DNA of 8,909 nucleotides from Desulfobacteraceae bacterium. GTDB taxonomy: Bacteria > Desulfobacterota > Desulfobacteria > Desulfobacterales > Desulfosalsimonadaceae. The stretch lies in the NCBI GenBank assembly GCA_007136525.1, contig SLGU01000310.1, positions 1 through 8,909 of the forward strand, given 5' to 3'. Position numbers and translations under genes: made by a program. Within the stretch, counting starts at the first letter, position 1. The number at the start of each line of letters is the position of its first letter. Below are positions 506 through 8,909 of the stretch, in pieces. The notes beneath the pieces were generated by a model. The model made no database searches and had not been told where the DNA came from. It saw nothing but the letters and a program-made list of their open reading frames with translations.

Positions 506-964
506 ATGTTTACTCAAAAAGCAAAAGGGCCCAGGCTTCTTTTGGTGGACGACGAAGAACGGTTCAGAACCACGCTTGCCAAGCGGCTCAAGGAAAAGGG
601 TTTTGATGTCGAGGATCTCGGCAGCGGTGTAGAAGCGATTGAATTTTTAAAAGACAAAAAAGTGGACGTTATTGTTCTTGATATCAAGATGCCCGGCCTT
701 GACGGGATCGAGACCCTTGCCGAAATCAAAAAATCGGACCCCGGTATCGAGGTGGTGCTTCTGACGGGGCACGGCACAGTTGACACCGCCATAGAAGGAA
801 TGCGAAGCGGCGCCCATGATTACCTGATGAAGCCCTGCGAGATCGACAACCTGATTTTGAAAATAAACGGTGCCTTCGAGGTGAAGAAAGAGCGGGACGA
901 CAGGTTGAAAAAGGCGGAAGAAAGAAGCCGGCTTGACAAGCTGGAAAAATCAGTCCGGTTTTAG
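506..964 (+). CDS. Single-domain response regulator (receiver domain)
   Basis: Protein of 152 residues. The receiver domain spans about residues 9-125. Acidic-pocket Asp15-Asp16 (LVDDE), phosphoacceptor Asp59 (VLDIKMP), switch Thr87 (LTGHG), Tyr106 and Lys109-Pro110 are all present, so it should accept phosphate from a histidine kinase. No DNA-binding, GGDEF or HD output domain follows; residues 125-152 are a charged, Lys/Glu/Arg-rich helix that may be a coiled coil. The frame stays open upstream to position 11, but that stretch crosses the intergenic repeat and a good promoter. The ATG at 506 has a purine-rich G tract just before it and starts exactly where receiver homology begins. It resembles the receiver of the fusion gene at 7650, sharing LVDDE, FRTT, AKRL and LTGHG. 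A small membrane-protein gene follows 6 bp later. Output is probably by protein-protein contact. Confidence 0.92.
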   Translation: MFTQKAKGPRLLLVDDEERFRTTLAKRLKEKGFDVEDLGSGVEAIEFLKDKKVDVIVLDIKMPGLDGIETLAEIKKSDPGIEVVLLTGHGTVDTAIEGMRSGAHDYLMKPCEIDNLILKINGAFEVKKERDDRLKKAEERSRLDKLEKSVRF

Positions 965-970
965 GTGGGC

Positions 971-1246
971 ATGACTGAAAAAAAAGAGGATGTAAAAGGC
1001 GATTTATCAAGCGTGAAAGGTCCCGGGGCCAAACAGGCGGACGGCGTAACCGGTGAAAGCGATGAGAAGGCTGCTGATCCCTTGTATCAGCTTTTGAAGC
1101 CGCTGCACAATTTACCCCGGGGAAAGAATGCATGGAATCCGCAATTCATCAGAAAACCGTGGTTCTGGCCTTTAAGTGTTGCCGTACTGATCCTTTTGTC
1201 CTATGTGTACCCCCATATCCTGCGTTTTCTGACCGGGGCGGAATGA
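971..1246 (+). CDS. Small membrane protein, partner of the response regulator
   Basis: Protein of 91 residues, family not recognised. The first ~55 residues are hydrophilic and charged. A Trp-rich segment (NAWNPQF, then PWFWP) leads into one hydrophobic helix at about residues 66-85, and the chain ends GAE, so this is probably a tail-anchored protein with a cytosolic N-terminus. I chose ATG 971 because AGGTGG lies just upstream. GTG 965, directly after the previous stop, is an alternative that adds two residues, but nothing resembling a ribosome site precedes it. Only 6 bp separate it from the response-regulator stop, so the two are almost certainly co-transcribed. I infer that it anchors or recruits the regulator to the membrane. 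In the fusion gene at 7650 a receiver is likewise followed by a membrane helix, but in one chain. Confidence 0.75.
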   Translation: MTEKKEDVKGDLSSVKGPGAKQADGVTGESDEKAADPLYQLLKPLHNLPRGKNAWNPQFIRKPWFWPLSVAVLILLSYVYPHILRFLTGAE

Positions 1247-1329: not shown

Positions 1330-1767
1330 TCAGGGGTCGTTCGAATACAGGTCTTTAGAATTCGCAGCGAGATTTTCAGAGGTTTTTTTACAGCGGCGCG
1401 CCTGCTTGGCGATTTCCAAAAGCGAGTTCAACAGTTCACCATAGTCTTCAATTGTCTCTTTTTCTGATAAAACAGCCTTCATCCCTTCTGCTTCTTTGCT
1501 TATAACATCCAAAGCATCGTTGATTTCATGGTATATATGCCCTGGCAACTGCTTCAATGACAAGTATTGGCTCAGGTTGTGGGTTATTTTTTTGCAGCGG
1601 GCCGTCTGTCTGCCGATTTCGGCGAGCGCATGCGTCAGGATGTCGCAATCGGCACAGTTACGTCTTTCTTTTCTGCTCAAAATATCCTGCATCCATCCGG
1701 CTTCTTCGTTGATAATGGCCAGTGGATTGTTTATTTCATGGGTAATCTGTTTGATCAACTGGTTCAT
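1330..1767 (-). CDS. Tandem DHp (HisKA-like) protein lacking an ATPase domain
   Basis: Protein of 145 residues built from two ~65-residue units, each resembling the dimerisation/phosphoacceptor helix pair of a histidine kinase. Unit 1 carries THEINNPLAII with His10; unit 2 carries YHEINDALDVI with His80. Both end in a matching second helix (RCKKITHNL near 57-65, RCKKTSENL near 125-133). Unit 1 closely resembles the H-box of the kinase at 5763-7550. There are no N, G1, F or G2 boxes, so it cannot bind ATP as a kinase does. A CxxC pair (Cys38, Cys41) lies between the helices of unit 1. I chose ATG 1767 because AAAGGA lies 7 bases upstream; a TTG at 1866 would add 33 unconvincing residues. It is convergent with the response-regulator pair. 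It may be a one-chain four-helix phosphotransferase, phosphatase or kinase adaptor; the role is inferred. Confidence 0.82.
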   Translation of the reverse strand: MNQLIKQITHEINNPLAIINEEAGWMQDILSRKERRNCADCDILTHALAEIGRQTARCKKITHNLSQYLSLKQLPGHIYHEINDALDVISKEAEGMKAVLSEKETIEDYGELLNSLLEIAKQARRCKKTSENLAANSKDLYSNDP

Positions 1768-1801
1768 GAAAAAGTCCTTTACAGGCAGTTGTTTAATTTC
1801 T

Positions 1802-1813
1802 GAAATGCATTTC
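1802..1813. promoter_or_regulatory. 12-bp perfect palindrome, putative operator
   Basis: GAAATGCATTTC is perfectly self-complementary and lies 35 bp before the start codon of the tandem-DHp gene, a usual place for a repressor site. No regulator can be named from the sequence. Confidence 0.3.
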
Positions 1814-2004
1814 CCGGGGTGATCGTGTTTGGGGAAAACCGGGCCTGTTTTTGGGTGCCGGTTCAAATTACGGGCAAGACATGCTTTATCCCCTGCCTTT
1901 TGTCACTGAAATGTTCTTTTTGCCTATCTTTATTCGTGGCGGGTGTCAAGCGGGTAGTTATGGTCTTTGCCGGTCAAGGGGAAAAACGTAAAGAAATTGA
2001 GAAA

Positions 2005-3923: not shown

Positions 3924-5348
3924 ATGGCTGAAGTTGAATCTTTGAACCAGGACGCCAACCCTAAGTCGATTATCATCAAGGCTGCCATCGCCGCTGCGGT
4001 CGGGCTTTTCATCTGGCTTCTGCCGACGCCGGACAGCCTGACGCCCGAAGGGCACAGGCTGCTTGCCCTGCTTGCCACCATTGTGATCCTGTTCGTCACC
4101 GAGGCGGTTCCCATAGGGGTGACAGCCCTGCTGGTGGGTGCGGGGCTTATCTTGTTTAATATTCAGTCCCCCCATGATGCCTGGGCCCCCTTTGCCAGCC
4201 CGGCGGTCATGTTCGTGCTCATGATCATCATGTTCGGTGTGGTTTTGAACGAGGTCGGCCTTGCCAAGCGGATCATGTACTACCTGCTGAAATTCGCCGG
4301 GACAAAAGTCAAGCGCCTCAGCTTTATTCTGGCCATTGGCTGCACCATGACCGCCAGCATTTTTCACGATGCAACCGTTACGGTAATTATGGTTTTTGCG
4401 TTTGTGCCGGTTTTCATGGCCATGGGCATGAAGCCCGGTGAAGGGCACCGCCTTCCCATGTTTTTCATGCTCCTGATTCCCATGGCTTCGTCCGCAGGCG
4501 GGTTCGCAACGCTTCTGGGCGGTGGTCGAAACCCCCTGGCCCTTGAGATACTGGCTGTGTTCTCCGAGGAATCGCCGCGCTTTGCCGAAGCCATAACGAT
4601 CGGGTTCATGCAATACATGGGCATCCAGTTTCCCATCGCAATCCTCACCGCCCTTGGCACCTGGGCAATTTTATGGGTTGTTTTCCGCCCGAAAGAAAAG
4701 GAGTTGACGGGGATCGAACTGGAAGATCCCGGCCCCATGACGTTTAAGGAAACCGGGGTGCTCGTCGTTTTTCTCGTCACCTTCATTCTCTGGTTTGCCG
4801 GGGATTTCACCGGCTGGCATGTCAGCATCCCGGCTGCGCTTGCCATCATGGGTTTCTGCGGGCCCCGGTTTATCGCGTTCCAAACCATCTGCGACAAGTT
4901 CCCGTGGGAATCGTGGATTGTTTTTGGCGCGGGTGTTTCTCTGGGTATGGCCATGCTGGAAACGGGTGCCGGGTTGTTTCTTGCTGAAACCCTGCTGCCA
5001 CTCCTCCAGGGGAGGCACGAATTTATCGTTTATTTCGGCTTCGGTTTCTTCGGGTCGTTTGTGTCCAGCCTTATGAGCAACTCGGCGGCCGTTGCGCTCA
5101 TGCTGCCCATCACACTGCCCATGGCGGACATGATGGACATGTCGCCCCAGGCGATTGCGCTGCTGGCGCCAATGACGACCTCTTTTATCATGCTGGTTAT
5201 CGGCTGCCCGCCGACCATCATTGCATACAGCACCGGTTATTTCACCCAGGGACAGTTCGTCAAGTATGCCGTGCCCTGGTGCCTTTTCCTTCTGCTGGTC
5301 TGCACGCTGGCGGTAATGATATACTGGCCGCTGATCGGGTTTTCGTAA
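3924..5348 (+). CDS. SLC13/DASS-family anion or carboxylate permease
   Basis: Protein of 474 residues, typical of the divalent anion:sodium symporter family, which imports dicarboxylates, sulfate or related anions through the inner membrane. Most of the chain is hydrophobic, about 11-12 membrane segments. Family marks: TEAVPIG (59-65), a re-entrant SNSAA motif in the second half (385-389), and PPTIIAYSTGYF (429-440). In the first half the expected SNT motif is replaced by Phe-His-Asp (147-149, then ATVT), and the usual PPN loop reads GGRN (200-203). Because SNT motifs help form the sodium sites, coupling at site 1 may differ. The ATG has GAGGT 7 bases upstream. It has its own promoter and a strong terminator, so it is probably monocistronic. 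The substrate cannot be assigned; a carboxylate is suggested by the CoA ligase upstream. It is a homologue of the fused permease at 7650. Confidence 0.9.
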   Translation: MAEVESLNQDANPKSIIIKAAIAAAVGLFIWLLPTPDSLTPEGHRLLALLATIVILFVTEAVPIGVTALLVGAGLILFNIQSPHDAWAPFASPAVMFVLMIIMFGVVLNEVGLAKRIMYYLLKFAGTKVKRLSFILAIGCTMTASIFHDATVTVIMVFAFVPVFMAMGMKPGEGHRLPMFFMLLIPMASSAGGFATLLGGGRNPLALEILAVFSEESPRFAEAITIGFMQYMGIQFPIAILTALGTWAILWVVFRPKEKELTGIELEDPGPMTFKETGVLVVFLVTFILWFAGDFTGWHVSIPAALAIMGFCGPRFIAFQTICDKFPWESWIVFGAGVSLGMAMLETGAGLFLAETLLPLLQGRHEFIVYFGFGFFGSFVSSLMSNSAAVALMLPITLPMADMMDMSPQAIALLAPMTTSFIMLVIGCPPTIIAYSTGYFTQGQFVKYAVPWCLFLLLVCTLAVMIYWPLIGFS

Positions 5349-5693: not shown

Positions 5694-5762
5694 GGGAGCA
5701 TTGCTTTTTTTGTACTTCAGGCGGATTTATGAGCGTTTTTAACCTTGAAGTTGGGACAATGC

Positions 5763-7550
5763 ATGGCACAAAATGAAGTCCGGCGCTCCGGTTCAAACCG
5801 CAAAAGCAATGGCGGCAGCATATCCAGCGAGCGTGAAGCCCCCCCCAACAAGGAACTCACCAAGAATTATTATCGATGGCTGAAACACGGCATACTCATT
5901 TGCCTGTTTATCACCTACCTGGTTCCCATAAGCATACTCAGCACCTATTTCAGTTACAAATTCGATCAAAGCATGCGGGAGAGCAGCAAGCTCCAGCTAG
6001 TTGCGGTTGCCGAAAGCCAGAAGAACACCATCGACCTTTTCATGCAGAAGAAAATTGTCAATGTATTCAACTTGTTCCATAAGGAGGATTTTTCCCTTAA
6101 GCCCGGCCATGAAAAGATGCATTCGTACCTGGACAGCCTGATCCAGGCGGACGAAGCTTTTGTGGATGTCGGGCTCATCAACCCGGAGGGAATACAGACA
6201 GGATATGCGGGACCCTATCCGAACCTTCTTAATAAAGACTACAGTGATGAAAGCTGGTATGACAAGCTTTTGACTCAGCCGGAAAGCTATATTGTTACAG
6301 ATCTTTATCTTGGCCTGAGAAGGCAGCCCCATTTCACGGTGGGCGTCAAACGGATGGTGGACGAGCGGTACTACGTAGTCCGGACAAGCGTTTACCCGGA
6401 CAAACTCCAGGACTTCATTCATACGGCCAGTCACGGTAAAGACGCAAAAGGCTACCTGGTCAACCGCCAGGGAATATACCAGGTTGTTGACCCCAACCTG
6501 GGAGAACTGCTTGAACCGGCCCGTTTTTTCCCACCAGAGGGGAAGCGGGCCGATGTAAATTTTATCAACTGGGACGGCAGAACAATGCTTGCCGCCTATA
6601 CATGGCTGAAGGAAGTGCCGTGGTGCCTGGTCATGCTGCAGCCCCAGGAAATAGCATTCGAGGAGATGTATGCCATACGCAATACCATGCTCTTTGGCGC
6701 TGCGCTTCTGGTCCTGGGCATCATGTTTTTTATATGGTTGATCGTGAATATTCTGGTCACCAAGGCCCAGGCCATCGAAAGGGAAAGACGAGAACTCCGG
6801 AGCCAGTTATACCATGCCAACAAGCTGGTTTCCGTTGGGGAGCTGGCCGGTGGTGTTGCCCATGAAATCAACAACCCCCTCGCCATTATCGAGGCCGAAG
6901 CCGGAATCATCAAGGACATGCTCGATCCGGCCATGGGGTTTGATGCTTCTCCGGAAGCGATCCGAAAAGAACTTGACCAGATCGACAAGGCTGTCCGGCG
7001 CGCCAAGGGGGTAACCCAGAAAATATTGAGTTTTGTCCGAAAAACCGAGCCCAAGCTTGTTGAATGCAATATCAACCAGTTGCTTGACGAGGCTGTTTCC
7101 GGCGTGAAAGATCAGGAATTCAGGGTTTCGGGCATTAACCTCGAAAAAGAATACGACGAAAACCTGCCCAAAATATATGTGGACCCCGATCTGATGCGGC
7201 AGGTTTTTCTCAACCTGCTCAACAATGCCGGCGATGCGGTTGGAGAAGGCGACACCATTTTCCTGAAAACAACCGCCGGCGAAAACTGCGTTAGGATAAC
7301 TATCGCCGATACCGGCACAGGCATGGCACCGGACCAGATTGAAAAAATTTTCATGCCTTTTTACACGACCAAGGAGGTCGGTAAAGGAACGGGACTGGGC
7401 CTTCTGATTTGCCTGAATATCATCGAGGGGTTTGGCGGGCGAATCGAGGTGCAAAGCACACCCGGTGAAGGTTCGGCATTTACGATGGTATTGCCGCTGC
7501 CTGGCAGATCCCTGGAAAAACAAGGCGATGGAACCGATAAAAAATCATAA
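5763..7550 (+). CDS. Membrane sensor histidine kinase with Cache-like sensor
   Basis: Protein of 595 residues. Residues 1-40 are polar; membrane helices lie at about 43-65 and 309-331. The periplasmic part between them (~66-305) resembles a double Cache ligand-binding domain, with WYDKLL (165-170), YIVTDLYLG (176-184) and a transition into GYLVNRQG (230-237). The cytosolic part has a short coiled coil (334-353), a HisKA domain with phosphoacceptor His367 in AHEINNP, and a full HATPase domain: N box NLLNNAGDA (484-491), G1 DTGTG (516-520), F box FMPFY (530-534) and G2 GKGTGLGL (540-547). It should be an active kinase. I chose ATG 5763, with GGGA a few bases upstream; an in-frame TTG at 5745 would add six residues. 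The receiver-permease fusion starts 99 bp downstream and is its probable phosphorylation target. The ligand is unknown; Cache kinases of the DctB type sense small carboxylates. Confidence 0.93.
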   Translation: MAQNEVRRSGSNRKSNGGSISSEREAPPNKELTKNYYRWLKHGILICLFITYLVPISILSTYFSYKFDQSMRESSKLQLVAVAESQKNTIDLFMQKKIVNVFNLFHKEDFSLKPGHEKMHSYLDSLIQADEAFVDVGLINPEGIQTGYAGPYPNLLNKDYSDESWYDKLLTQPESYIVTDLYLGLRRQPHFTVGVKRMVDERYYVVRTSVYPDKLQDFIHTASHGKDAKGYLVNRQGIYQVVDPNLGELLEPARFFPPEGKRADVNFINWDGRTMLAAYTWLKEVPWCLVMLQPQEIAFEEMYAIRNTMLFGAALLVLGIMFFIWLIVNILVTKAQAIERERRELRSQLYHANKLVSVGELAGGVAHEINNPLAIIEAEAGIIKDMLDPAMGFDASPEAIRKELDQIDKAVRRAKGVTQKILSFVRKTEPKLVECNINQLLDEAVSGVKDQEFRVSGINLEKEYDENLPKIYVDPDLMRQVFLNLLNNAGDAVGEGDTIFLKTTAGENCVRITIADTGTGMAPDQIEKIFMPFYTTKEVGKGTGLGLLICLNIIEGFGGRIEVQSTPGEGSAFTMVLPLPGRSLEKQGDGTDKKS

Positions 7551-7638: not shown

Positions 7639-7652
7639 GGAGGTTTACGGTG
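7639..7652 (+). promoter_or_regulatory. Ribosome binding site defining the GTG start of the fusion
   Basis: GGAGG (7639-7643) lies 6 bases before GTG 7650, ideal spacing. No in-frame ATG occurs before residue 28, which is already inside the receiver fold, so this site fixes the start. Confidence 0.85.
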
Positions 7653-8909
7653 ACTGAGAACGGTAAACGAAACACGGAGGAAAAGGCAAGGATCCTGCTT
7701 GTAGACGATGAAGATCAGTTTCGGACTACTATGGCGAAAAGGCTTACGGCCCGCGGGTATGACGTTATCGACCTGGACAACGGGGAAGACGCCGTAAAAA
7801 CTGTTCGCCATGAAAACCCGGAAGTGGTCGTGCTGGATCAGAACATGCCCCATTGGGACGGCATCCGGACGCTGCGCGAGTTGAAAAAAATCCGTCCGGA
7901 GGTTCAGATCATCATGCTCACCGGTCACGGCAACGTTGAGTCGGCGCGTGTTTCCGGCAAACATGATATTTTTGCCTACATGCAGAAGCCCGCACCCATC
8001 GAGGAAATGATCGAAAAGATCGAGGGCGCCCGCCAGGAATACCGGTACGCCATGCTGCGGCAGGAAATCCCACACATTGAAAGGCCGACACTTAAAAACT
8101 GGCTCATCGGGGTACAGGGGAGGCGTCCGGGCATCATGATTATCGGACTGCTCCTGTTTGCCATGATGTATTTCATACCCCCCACGGATCGGCTCCTCGA
8201 GCTGTTGTCTGCGGAAAAAGGCGGGCCGAAAAACGAGATGATAATGGGGTATGCCGAGTACCGGAACCTAGATGAAGGAATGACACCGTCGGAGCATTAC
8301 GCCCGGACGGCCCGCATCCGGGCGGATGCGGACCAGGTTACGCAGATTGCCGCCCAGAAGGCCAAGATCATGATCGGCGTGCTCATGGTGGCCGCACTTT
8401 TCTGGGCCTCCGGCGCGGTCCCCATCGGGATTGCGGCCTTGCTCGTGGGTGTTCTCATGTACTGGTTCGGGGTGCTCCCGCCCAACGGGGTGGCCAAGGC
8501 GTATGCCACGGATGCCGTGTTTTTTATTTTCGGCGTGCTCTCCATGGCAGCGGCCATTGCCAAGACAGGGCTGGATCGGCGCATCGGGATTCTGCTGCTG
8601 AAGCCCTCGACCAACCTGTGGCGCCTGGCTGTTATTTTCGCGCCCATGGTGGCCGTGTGCGCCTCGTTTTTGTCGGAGCATGCCATTATCGCGTTTCTTG
8701 CGCCCGTATTCATGATGGTCTACATGGGTTCGGTCAAGGCGAGTGGTATTACCCGGGACAAGGCGCTGGTGGTGATGATGATGCTGACGCTCAATTTCGC
8801 CTGCAACGTGGGCGGTCCCGGGTCGCCGGCGGCCGGCGGCCGGAACGTCATCATGATCGGCTACCTTGCCGACTACGGCATTAATGTCACCTTCGGCCAG
8901 TGGGTCATG
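7650..8909 (+). CDS. Response-regulator receiver fused to SLC13/DASS permease (partial)
   Basis: An uninterrupted frame of 420 codons runs off the right edge, so the C-terminus is missing. Residues 13-130 are a complete receiver: Asp19-Asp20 (LVDDE), phosphoacceptor Asp63 (VLDQNMP), switch Thr91 (LTGHG), Tyr110 and Lys113-Pro114. A linker (~131-160) leads to a first membrane helix (~161-176), then a charged segment of about 60 residues (178-238) that the stand-alone permease lacks. SLC13 sequence resumes at ~240 with SGAVPIG (254-260), a first-half motif SEH (342-344) in place of SNT, and GGRN (396-399) in place of PPN. Codon use and reading frame change nowhere, so this is a real fusion and not two genes read together. 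It lies 99 bp after a histidine kinase. I infer a transporter whose activity is set by phosphorylation of its own receiver. The substrate is unknown. Confidence 0.9.
   Translation, partial: MTENGKRNTEEKARILLVDDEDQFRTTMAKRLTARGYDVIDLDNGEDAVKTVRHENPEVVVLDQNMPHWDGIRTLRELKKIRPEVQIIMLTGHGNVESARVSGKHDIFAYMQKPAPIEEMIEKIEGARQEYRYAMLRQEIPHIERPTLKNWLIGVQGRRPGIMIIGLLLFAMMYFIPPTDRLLELLSAEKGGPKNEMIMGYAEYRNLDEGMTPSEHYARTARIRADADQVTQIAAQKAKIMIGVLMVAALFWASGAVPIGIAALLVGVLMYWFGVLPPNGVAKAYATDAVFFIFGVLSMAAAIAKTGLDRRIGILLLKPSTNLWRLAVIFAPMVAVCASFLSEHAIIAFLAPVFMMVYMGSVKASGITRDKALVVMMMLTLNFACNVGGPGSPAAGGRNVIMIGYLADYGINVTFGQWVM

What the first reader, a model, noticed from the sequence alone, without database searches (positions are those of the whole stretch)
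7650..8909. Transporter with a built-in response-regulator receiver: a receiver-SLC13 fusion
Seen: one frame with no stop contains a complete receiver domain (Asp19/Asp20, Asp63, Thr91, Lys113) followed directly by SLC13/DASS permease sequence. Known: fusions of transporters to histidine kinases exist, such as CbrA with an SLC5-like domain, where the transporter part acts as sensor or input. Here the transporter sits in the output position after a receiver, so phosphorylation would gate or tune transport directly, bypassing transcription. I know of no described system of this kind, though related genes may already sit in databases as unstudied domain combinations.
Basis: partly seen in the sequence, partly recalled or inferred. 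Interest (0 to 1): 0.9.

Follow-up and report, generated by a model that had tools for sequence, protein, structure and literature searches.

The report
Transporter fused to a phosphorylation switch
A bacterial membrane transporter carries, as part of the same protein, the small switch domain that signalling kinases normally use to control genes, which suggests that cells can adjust uptake directly by phosphorylating the transporter; the combination recurs in many sediment bacteria, but no experiment on it was found.

Summary
The open frame 7650-8909 encodes a complete receiver domain followed by the first half of a DASS/SLC13 permease. It is no artefact: 78 of 80 related loci carry both domains in one ORF (the other two are cut by contig ends), from sulfate reducers, Zixibacteria, Acidobacteriota, Planctomycetota and others. 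D63, T91 and K113 are kept in 73 of 73. Fused permeases form one side of a single branch among 143 permeases. The gene sits in a recurrent module: a Cache-type histidine kinase upstream (55 of 60; distant control ORFs 5 of 121) and a receiver-only gene downstream (61 of 73; control 1 of 155), often with a CBS-pair protein. None of 64 downstream receiver proteins shows a DNA-binding domain. In many unfused sister permeases receiver and kinase are separate neighbouring genes. Best reading: the kinase phosphorylates the fused receiver and so tunes transport directly. This step is inferred; substrate and sign are unknown. The architecture is not unseen: one database entry is named 'Response regulator modulated sodium/sulf...', and DASS/two-component/CBS clusters were published in 2025 as sulfate-uptake clusters, with a transcriptional model and no mention of a fusion in the main text searched.

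The parts
5745..7550 (+). Histidine kinase (dCache_1, HisKA, HATPase_c), the likely phosphodonor
   Evidence: HATPase_c 89.9 bits, dCache_1 46.4, HisKA 30.1; a kinase lies upstream on the same strand within 1.5 kb in 55 of 60 fusion loci with enough upstream sequence.
7639..7643 (+). GGAGG, ribosome-binding-site-like, 6 bases before GTG 7650
   Evidence: Read from the sequence.
7650..8909 (+). Receiver-SLC13 fusion ORF (GTG start; runs off the window end; full-length relatives are mostly about 680-700 aa)
   Evidence: relatives.
7692..8024 (+). Receiver domain, residues 15-125
   Evidence: 85.6 bits; 63 of 63 relatives scanned match Response_reg.
7836..7838 (+). Codon of the predicted phospho-acceptor Asp63
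   Evidence: GAT; D in 73 of 73 aligned sequences.
8025..8126 (+). Linker, residues 126-159 (conserved E139, W151, G154, R159, then P160)
   Evidence: W151, G154, R159 and P160 in 73 of 73, E139 in 72 of 73.
8127..8174 (+). Residues 160-175, first helix of the permease
   Evidence: Helix 160-175 in the AlphaFold2 model of P0002.
8355..8909 (+). SLC13/DASS permease, first half (residues 236-420)
   Evidence: fold match of the full relative P0002.
8673..8681 (+). First hairpin motif SEH (342-344), in the place of SNT in VcINDY
8811..8846 (+). Motif GGPGSPAAGGRN (388-399)
   Evidence: 11 of the 12 positions in 73 of 73, A395 in 72 of 73.

Best explanation
The gene encodes a response regulator whose output domain is a secondary transporter of the SLC13/DASS fold. 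SHOWN by sequence: one protein with a complete receiver and (in relatives) a complete permease, conserved in many phyla and usually encoded with a Cache histidine kinase and a receiver-only protein, often with a CBS-pair protein. INFERRED: the kinase senses a ligand through its Cache domain and phosphorylates Asp63 of the fused receiver. The receiver lies on the cytoplasmic side just before the first permease helix; phosphorylation changes its packing or pairing across the DASS dimer and so raises or lowers transport. The receiver-only protein probably competes for phosphoryl groups or acts on a second target, and the CBS protein adds a nucleotide or energy signal. The substrate is probably an anion by family; sulfate is likely in the sulfate reducers but unproven. 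The sign of control is unknown.
Against: No biochemistry was found. Five of 60 loci lack a kinase within 1.5 kb upstream, 12 of 73 lack the downstream receiver gene, and a CBS protein is found in only 29 of 46. A sigma-54-type response regulator with receiver and HTH (Pfam in L020 and L021) lies near a minority of loci (6 receiver-bearing members of cluster 3), so a transcriptional arm may coexist. The model gave no readable receiver-permease interface and no dimer. Transport is not shown for any member: SNT of VcINDY is replaced by SEH/SDG, so coupling ion and substrate may differ or transport may be absent. The published model for clusters of this type is transcriptional.
Confidence: 0.62

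Rival explanations
1. Transceptor: the permease senses its substrate (flux or occupancy) and changes how readily its receiver takes or loses phosphoryl groups, so that the fused protein informs the kinase/receiver network rather than being controlled by it.
For: SLC5-STAC kinases such as CbrA and CrbS join transporter and signalling parts (abstracts). The permease motifs differ from SNT. A receiver-only protein that could take part in the output lies next door in 61 of 73 loci.
Against: A receiver is normally the recipient of phosphoryl groups, not an upstream input; the kinase has its own Cache sensor; permease motifs are kept as in unfused sisters.
Confidence: 0.17
2. Transcriptional control, as published for DASS/TCS/CBS clusters: the kinase sets transporter expression through separate DNA-binding regulators and the fused receiver plays a minor part or none.
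For: PMC11887813 section 14 proposes sensing of external sulfate and 'WalR type' response regulators. A family of 448-488 aa proteins lies near 9 of 76 fusion loci (cluster 3); 6 of the 9 carry a receiver, and the two tested (L020, L021) are sigma-54 activators with receiver and HTH_8.
Against: 64 of 64 downstream receiver proteins show no DNA-binding domain. An unused fused receiver would hardly keep D63, T91 and K113 in 73 of 73. The same paper calls these transporters constitutively formed.
Confidence: 0.12
3. Phosphate sink or tether: the fused receiver only drains phosphoryl groups or holds the kinase near the membrane or transporter; transport is not altered.
For: Several receivers per operon with one kinase, as in sink schemes (recalled; layouts).
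Against: Linker residues W151, G154, R159 and P160 are invariant in 73 of 73, more than a free tether needs.
Confidence: 0.07
4. Assembly or gene-calling artefact joining two genes.
For: Receiver and DASS genes do occur as neighbours in one frame separated by a stop (L081). Four genome rows of the family have one in-frame stop inside the match (position not examined).
Against: 78 of 80 loci from many assemblies, one tree branch.
Confidence: 0.02

Closest known systems
DASS sulfate-transporter gene clusters with two-component systems and CBS proteins in Desulfobacteraceae (PMC11887813; section 14 read, other passages by word search)
   Same: DASS transporters, Cache-type sensor kinases, response regulators and CBS proteins in one cluster. 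In several of our loci the fusion lies next to a second, about 615-aa DASS and a REC-CBS protein (L001, L015, L038).
   Different: The words fusion, fused and receiver do not occur in the main text. The proposed control is transcriptional. Figures and supplements could not be read, so it is not shown that the fusion is one of their named proteins.
SLC5-STAC histidine kinases CbrA and CrbS/MxtR (abstracts)
   Same: A transporter domain in one protein with two-component domains.
   Different: There the transporter is joined to a kinase and is of another family (SLC5). Here an SLC13 permease follows a receiver and there is no kinase in the protein.
VcINDY, NaCT, NaS1 (DASS/SLC13 transporters)
   Different: SNT replaced by SEH and SDG; N-terminal receiver added; about 50 residues between the first two long permease helices.
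Transporters with built-in or associated CBS domains (review PMC10710835, passages)
   Same: Soluble regulatory domain acting on a transporter.
   Different: Nucleotide or ion binding instead of aspartyl phosphorylation. The review has no occurrence of receiver, response regulator, two-component or histidine kinase.
Response regulators with non-DNA outputs
   Same: Canonical N-terminal receiver with a C-terminal effector.
   Different: The effector is a polytopic membrane transporter. No described example was seen in the listings (held open-access library only; long listings were seen in part).

Membership tests
Response regulator (receiver domain) | Pfam Response_reg above cut-off | tested here: met
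   85.6 bits against 30.2; Response_reg at E <= 0.001 in 63 of 63 relatives.
Response regulator (receiver domain) | Acidic pair, phospho-acceptor Asp, Thr/Ser, Lys | tested here: met
   D19 73/73, D20 72/73, D63 73/73, T91 73/73, K113 73/73.
Response regulator (receiver domain) | Accepts phosphoryl groups from a cognate kinase | not testable with these tools
   Kinase neighbour only: 55 of 60 loci.
SLC13/DASS transporter | Pfam Na_sulph_symp and CitMHS over the permease | tested here: met
   for the half in the window; P0002 100.9 and 100.2 bits.
SLC13/DASS transporter | NCBIfam TIGR00785 (dass) above its cut-off | tested here: not met
   P0002 155.3 bits against 198.6: a divergent relative. 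The 615-aa neighbour type in L038 scores 225.2.
SLC13/DASS transporter | DASS fold | tested here: met
SLC13/DASS transporter | SNT motifs at the two hairpin tips (Na+ and substrate; role recalled) | tested here: not met
   SEH and SDG instead, also in the unfused sisters (SEH 23 of 23, SDG 22 of 23).
SLC13/DASS transporter | Na+-coupled anion transport | not testable with these tools
   No assay; no characterised member found.
SLC5-STAC-kinase type sensor | SLC5 and STAC domains with a kinase in one protein | tested here: not met
   receiver and SLC13-type matches; no kinase, SLC5 or STAC match.
Published DASS/TCS/CBS sulfate cluster | DASS, Cache kinase, response regulators and CBS protein in one cluster | tested here: met
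   In relatives, e.g. L001, L009, L034. In the window no CBS gene is seen; the near relative L037 has two downstream of its fusion. Over all, CBS near 29 of 46 fusion loci.
Published DASS/TCS/CBS sulfate cluster | Orthology to Dvar_38230 or Dvar_38430 | not tested
   Those sequences and the paper's figures were not available here.

The most novel reading that the evidence does not exclude
An old and widespread class of response regulator has a secondary transporter as its output domain. A histidine kinase switches transport within seconds by phosphorylating the transporter, with no transcription step, and a CBS protein and a free receiver complete a self-contained transport-control module shared by sulfate reducers and other bacteria.
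Probability: 0.5. Interest if true: 0.85.

Novelty: new variant of a known kind. Interest (0 to 1): 0.63.

Why it matters
Two-component systems are understood mostly as gene or enzyme switches. A receiver built into a transporter would make direct phospho-control of solute uptake testable in one protein. If the substrate is sulfate in Desulfobacterales, it would also suggest how sulfate reducers adjust the energy-costly entry of their electron acceptor, a step of sulfate reduction in sea sediments. The unfused sister operons give a ready control: same kinds of parts, separate genes.

Tried and rejected
Chance or artefact of the fusion: rejected. Two further fusions seemed to exist in Desulfatitalea alkaliphila (one search lists receiver and permease matches with the same 'open frame' length). 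On reading the DNA one is a receiver gene and a DASS gene with an in-frame stop between them; for the other, one search was read in the wrong frame and one search lists separate REC and SLC13 ORFs. First operon counts (kinase 49 of 66, receiver 50 of 70, CBS 29 of 53) used over-long or mis-chosen ORFs; the counts quoted come from the repeated run, which required at least 2.4 kb upstream for the kinase test and 600 bp downstream for the receiver test, so 18 and 5 of 78 loci were dropped, and 32 of 78 for the CBS test. Its control ORFs are mechanical ORFs of at least 200 aa, some of them possibly spurious. A first gene clustering merged receiver and CBS proteins through REC-CBS proteins and was replaced by domain profiles. 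Receiver positions conserved in fused but not in stand-alone receivers (R25, K50, E77, R82, P83, Q86, M89, G103) show no clear single face, so no interface is claimed. Rfam found nothing in the window. The 2018 sulfate-transporter survey (PMC5840216: word searches, section 18 read) has no 'response regulator', 'receiver' or 'fused'. The Desulfobacterium autotrophicum genome paper (PMC2702500, passages) says nothing of a fusion of this kind in the passages shown. Whether TOL2_19410 is the fusion could not be settled. PMC11237479, one of two papers holding 'receiver domain fused', was not opened, nor was the other. In the tree 'quick' mode was used, the tool warned that long branches meet among the unfused rows, one fused row (L091_6) has a long branch, and the root is arbitrary, so a single origin is not ruled out rather than proven.

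Full report
WHAT IS THERE. The frame 7650-8909 has no stop and encodes a receiver domain (residues 15-125) followed by the first half of an SLC13/DASS permease. The gene starts 99 bases after the stop of a Cache-HisKA-HATPase kinase (5745-7550), with GGAGG in front of its GTG. The window ends inside the permease, so the second half was not seen for this organism. The nearest database protein (P0002, 94% identical over the whole query) is 680 aa. A locus whose 380-residue fusion part is 99.7% identical to P0002, L037, continues with a receiver-only gene and two CBS genes.

IS IT REAL AND OLD. The protein search scored 8000 candidates and gave 1632 at E <= 0.001, of which the best 120 are listed. 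By eye all 120 listed rows carry the receiver and both permease Pfam families; the first 57 are at least 63% identical to the query. One genome-contig scan gave 136 relatives, 80 of them kept as loci; 78 of these 80 have both domains in one ORF and the other two are cut at a contig end. Pfam finds Response_reg, Na_sulph_symp and CitMHS in 63 of 63 members of the alignment used for the model. Record titles name Desulfobacterota-type sulfate reducers, Zixibacteria, Acidobacteriota, Planctomycetota, Gemmatimonadota, Calditrichota, Kapabacteria and others. Some bins may be mislabelled: L010 and L011 bear different phyla and are nearly alike in the tree.

HOW COMMON. Genomes with a match that includes the receiver: order of Desulfatitalea alkaliphila, 16 of 194 (17 rows; E <= 1e-90); phylum of the Zixibacteria genome behind L048, 30 of 132 (31 of 132 match, one row without the receiver part); phylum of L046, 7 of 247; phylum of L035, 5 of 294; phylum of D. 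alkaliphila, 2 of 297; the last four at E <= 1e-150. Four of these rows have one in-frame stop inside the match, not examined further.

THE MODULE. A census by profiles built here on the 78 fusion loci gives: kinase on the same strand within 1.5 kb upstream in 55 of 60 loci with at least 2.4 kb of upstream sequence (absent in L003, L038, L067, L070, L073; in L038 a kinase lies further upstream and in L070 downstream); receiver-only gene within 450 bp downstream in 61 of 73 with at least 600 bp; CBS protein nearby in 29 of 46. Control ORFs in the same loci, at least 200 aa, without these domains and over 6 kb away: kinase 5 of 121, receiver 1 of 155. Common orders are kinase > fusion > receiver (sulfate reducers) and kinase > CBS > fusion > receiver (Zixibacteria and others). 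Pfam on 64 of the 65 downstream receiver proteins listed (one 89-aa piece left out; L014 is cut by its contig end) finds Response_reg in all 64 and no DNA-binding domain; the other ten families are weak hits (best E 8.3e-06), the commonest being PDE8A_N, VpsR and FleQ, which I recall as receiver-like domains. Against a purely non-transcriptional picture: a family of 448-488 aa proteins lies near 9 loci; 6 carry a receiver and the two tested are sigma-54 activators with HTH_8.

UNFUSED SISTERS. Genomes of the same order hold permeases 39.6-45.7% identical to the fused permease without a receiver in the ORF. With the full P0002 as query the closer ones match from residue 125-157 onward; with a query cut at residue 151 they align from 151-159, i.e. 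at the domain border. Of 23 examined, 9 have a receiver (6) or receiver-CBS (3) gene directly upstream within 200 bp and 14 a Cache kinase within 450 bp downstream; several contigs end before a neighbour could be seen. In the tree of 143 permeases the 81 fused rows are one side of one branch (SH-aLRT 99). Parts that are neighbours in one lineage and one protein in another most simply act on each other, which is the main argument for receiver-permease interaction.

MECHANISM. The fused receiver lies before the first permease helix, on the cytoplasmic side by DASS topology (recalled), where the kinase core is. DASS proteins are dimers (recalled), and phosphorylated receivers often pair (recalled). 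So phosphorylation could change dimer contacts or the moving part and tune transport. This is inference: no phosphotransfer, transport or interface has been shown.

PRIOR KNOWLEDGE. PMC11887813 (section 14 read; passages searched) describes a 30.5-kb cluster of DASS transporters, two-component systems and CBS proteins in Desulfosarcina variabilis with relatives in other sulfate reducers (26 species in all), interprets it as sulfate uptake and proposes transcriptional control; fusion, fused and receiver do not occur in the main text. A database name 'Response regulator modulated sodium/sulf...' for the D. toluolica protein shows that annotators saw the combination. The review PMC10710835 on control of transporter activity has no receiver, response regulator, two-component or histidine kinase. 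Searches of the held open-access library: three found no paper, and the listings of the other six (four of them seen only in part) showed none on a receiver-transporter fusion by title and start of abstract; subscription papers are largely missing.

VERDICT. A real, conserved and functionally suggestive architecture, present in databases but, as far as searched, unstudied. New variant of a known kind.

Noticed in passing
window 1330-1866 (-): 178-aa ORF with a HisKA match (28.3 bits) and, by the session's kinase profile, a second such segment, but no ATPase domain: a kinase remnant or a phosphotransfer-like protein.
   Followed up: partly
window 512-964 and 965-1246 (+): A receiver-only stretch (Response_reg 107.7 bits) followed directly by a 93-aa ORF with one hydrophobic stretch and no Pfam match.
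   Followed up: partly
window 3924-5348 (+): A second, unfused DASS permease (474 aa) upstream of the kinase; its hairpin motifs are of the HDA/SNS type, unlike the fusion. Permeases with similar N-termini and an adjacent receiver gene lie in L081.
   Followed up: partly
L038:10023-10937, L001:6900-7886: Proteins of a receiver followed by a CBS pair, next to 615-aa DASS permeases: another receiver fused to a module without DNA-binding domain in the same clusters.
   Followed up: partly
L013:6789-8834, L014, L015, L017: The kinase beside the fusion carries its own N-terminal receiver (REC-dCache-HK) in some loci.
   Followed up: no
L081:6076-8037: Receiver gene and DASS gene as neighbours in the same frame, separated by one stop and a short spacer; a picture of how a fusion could arise.
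   Followed up: partly
L048:12600-14303, L056: A 567-aa Na_H_Exchanger plus TrkA_N protein (Pfam for L048), of the KefB kind, directly downstream of the module in two Zixibacteria loci.
   Followed up: partly
fused and sister permeases; 615-aa type: Acidic residues replace Asn of the SNT motif at both hairpins (SEH/SDG, SDH/ADG) in the two-component-associated DASS groups, hinting at another coupling ion or substrate.
   Followed up: partly
L001:6370-6900: A Yip1-domain membrane protein (Pfam for L001) between the 615-aa DASS and the REC-CBS gene; relatives in 6 loci (cluster 5).
   Followed up: no
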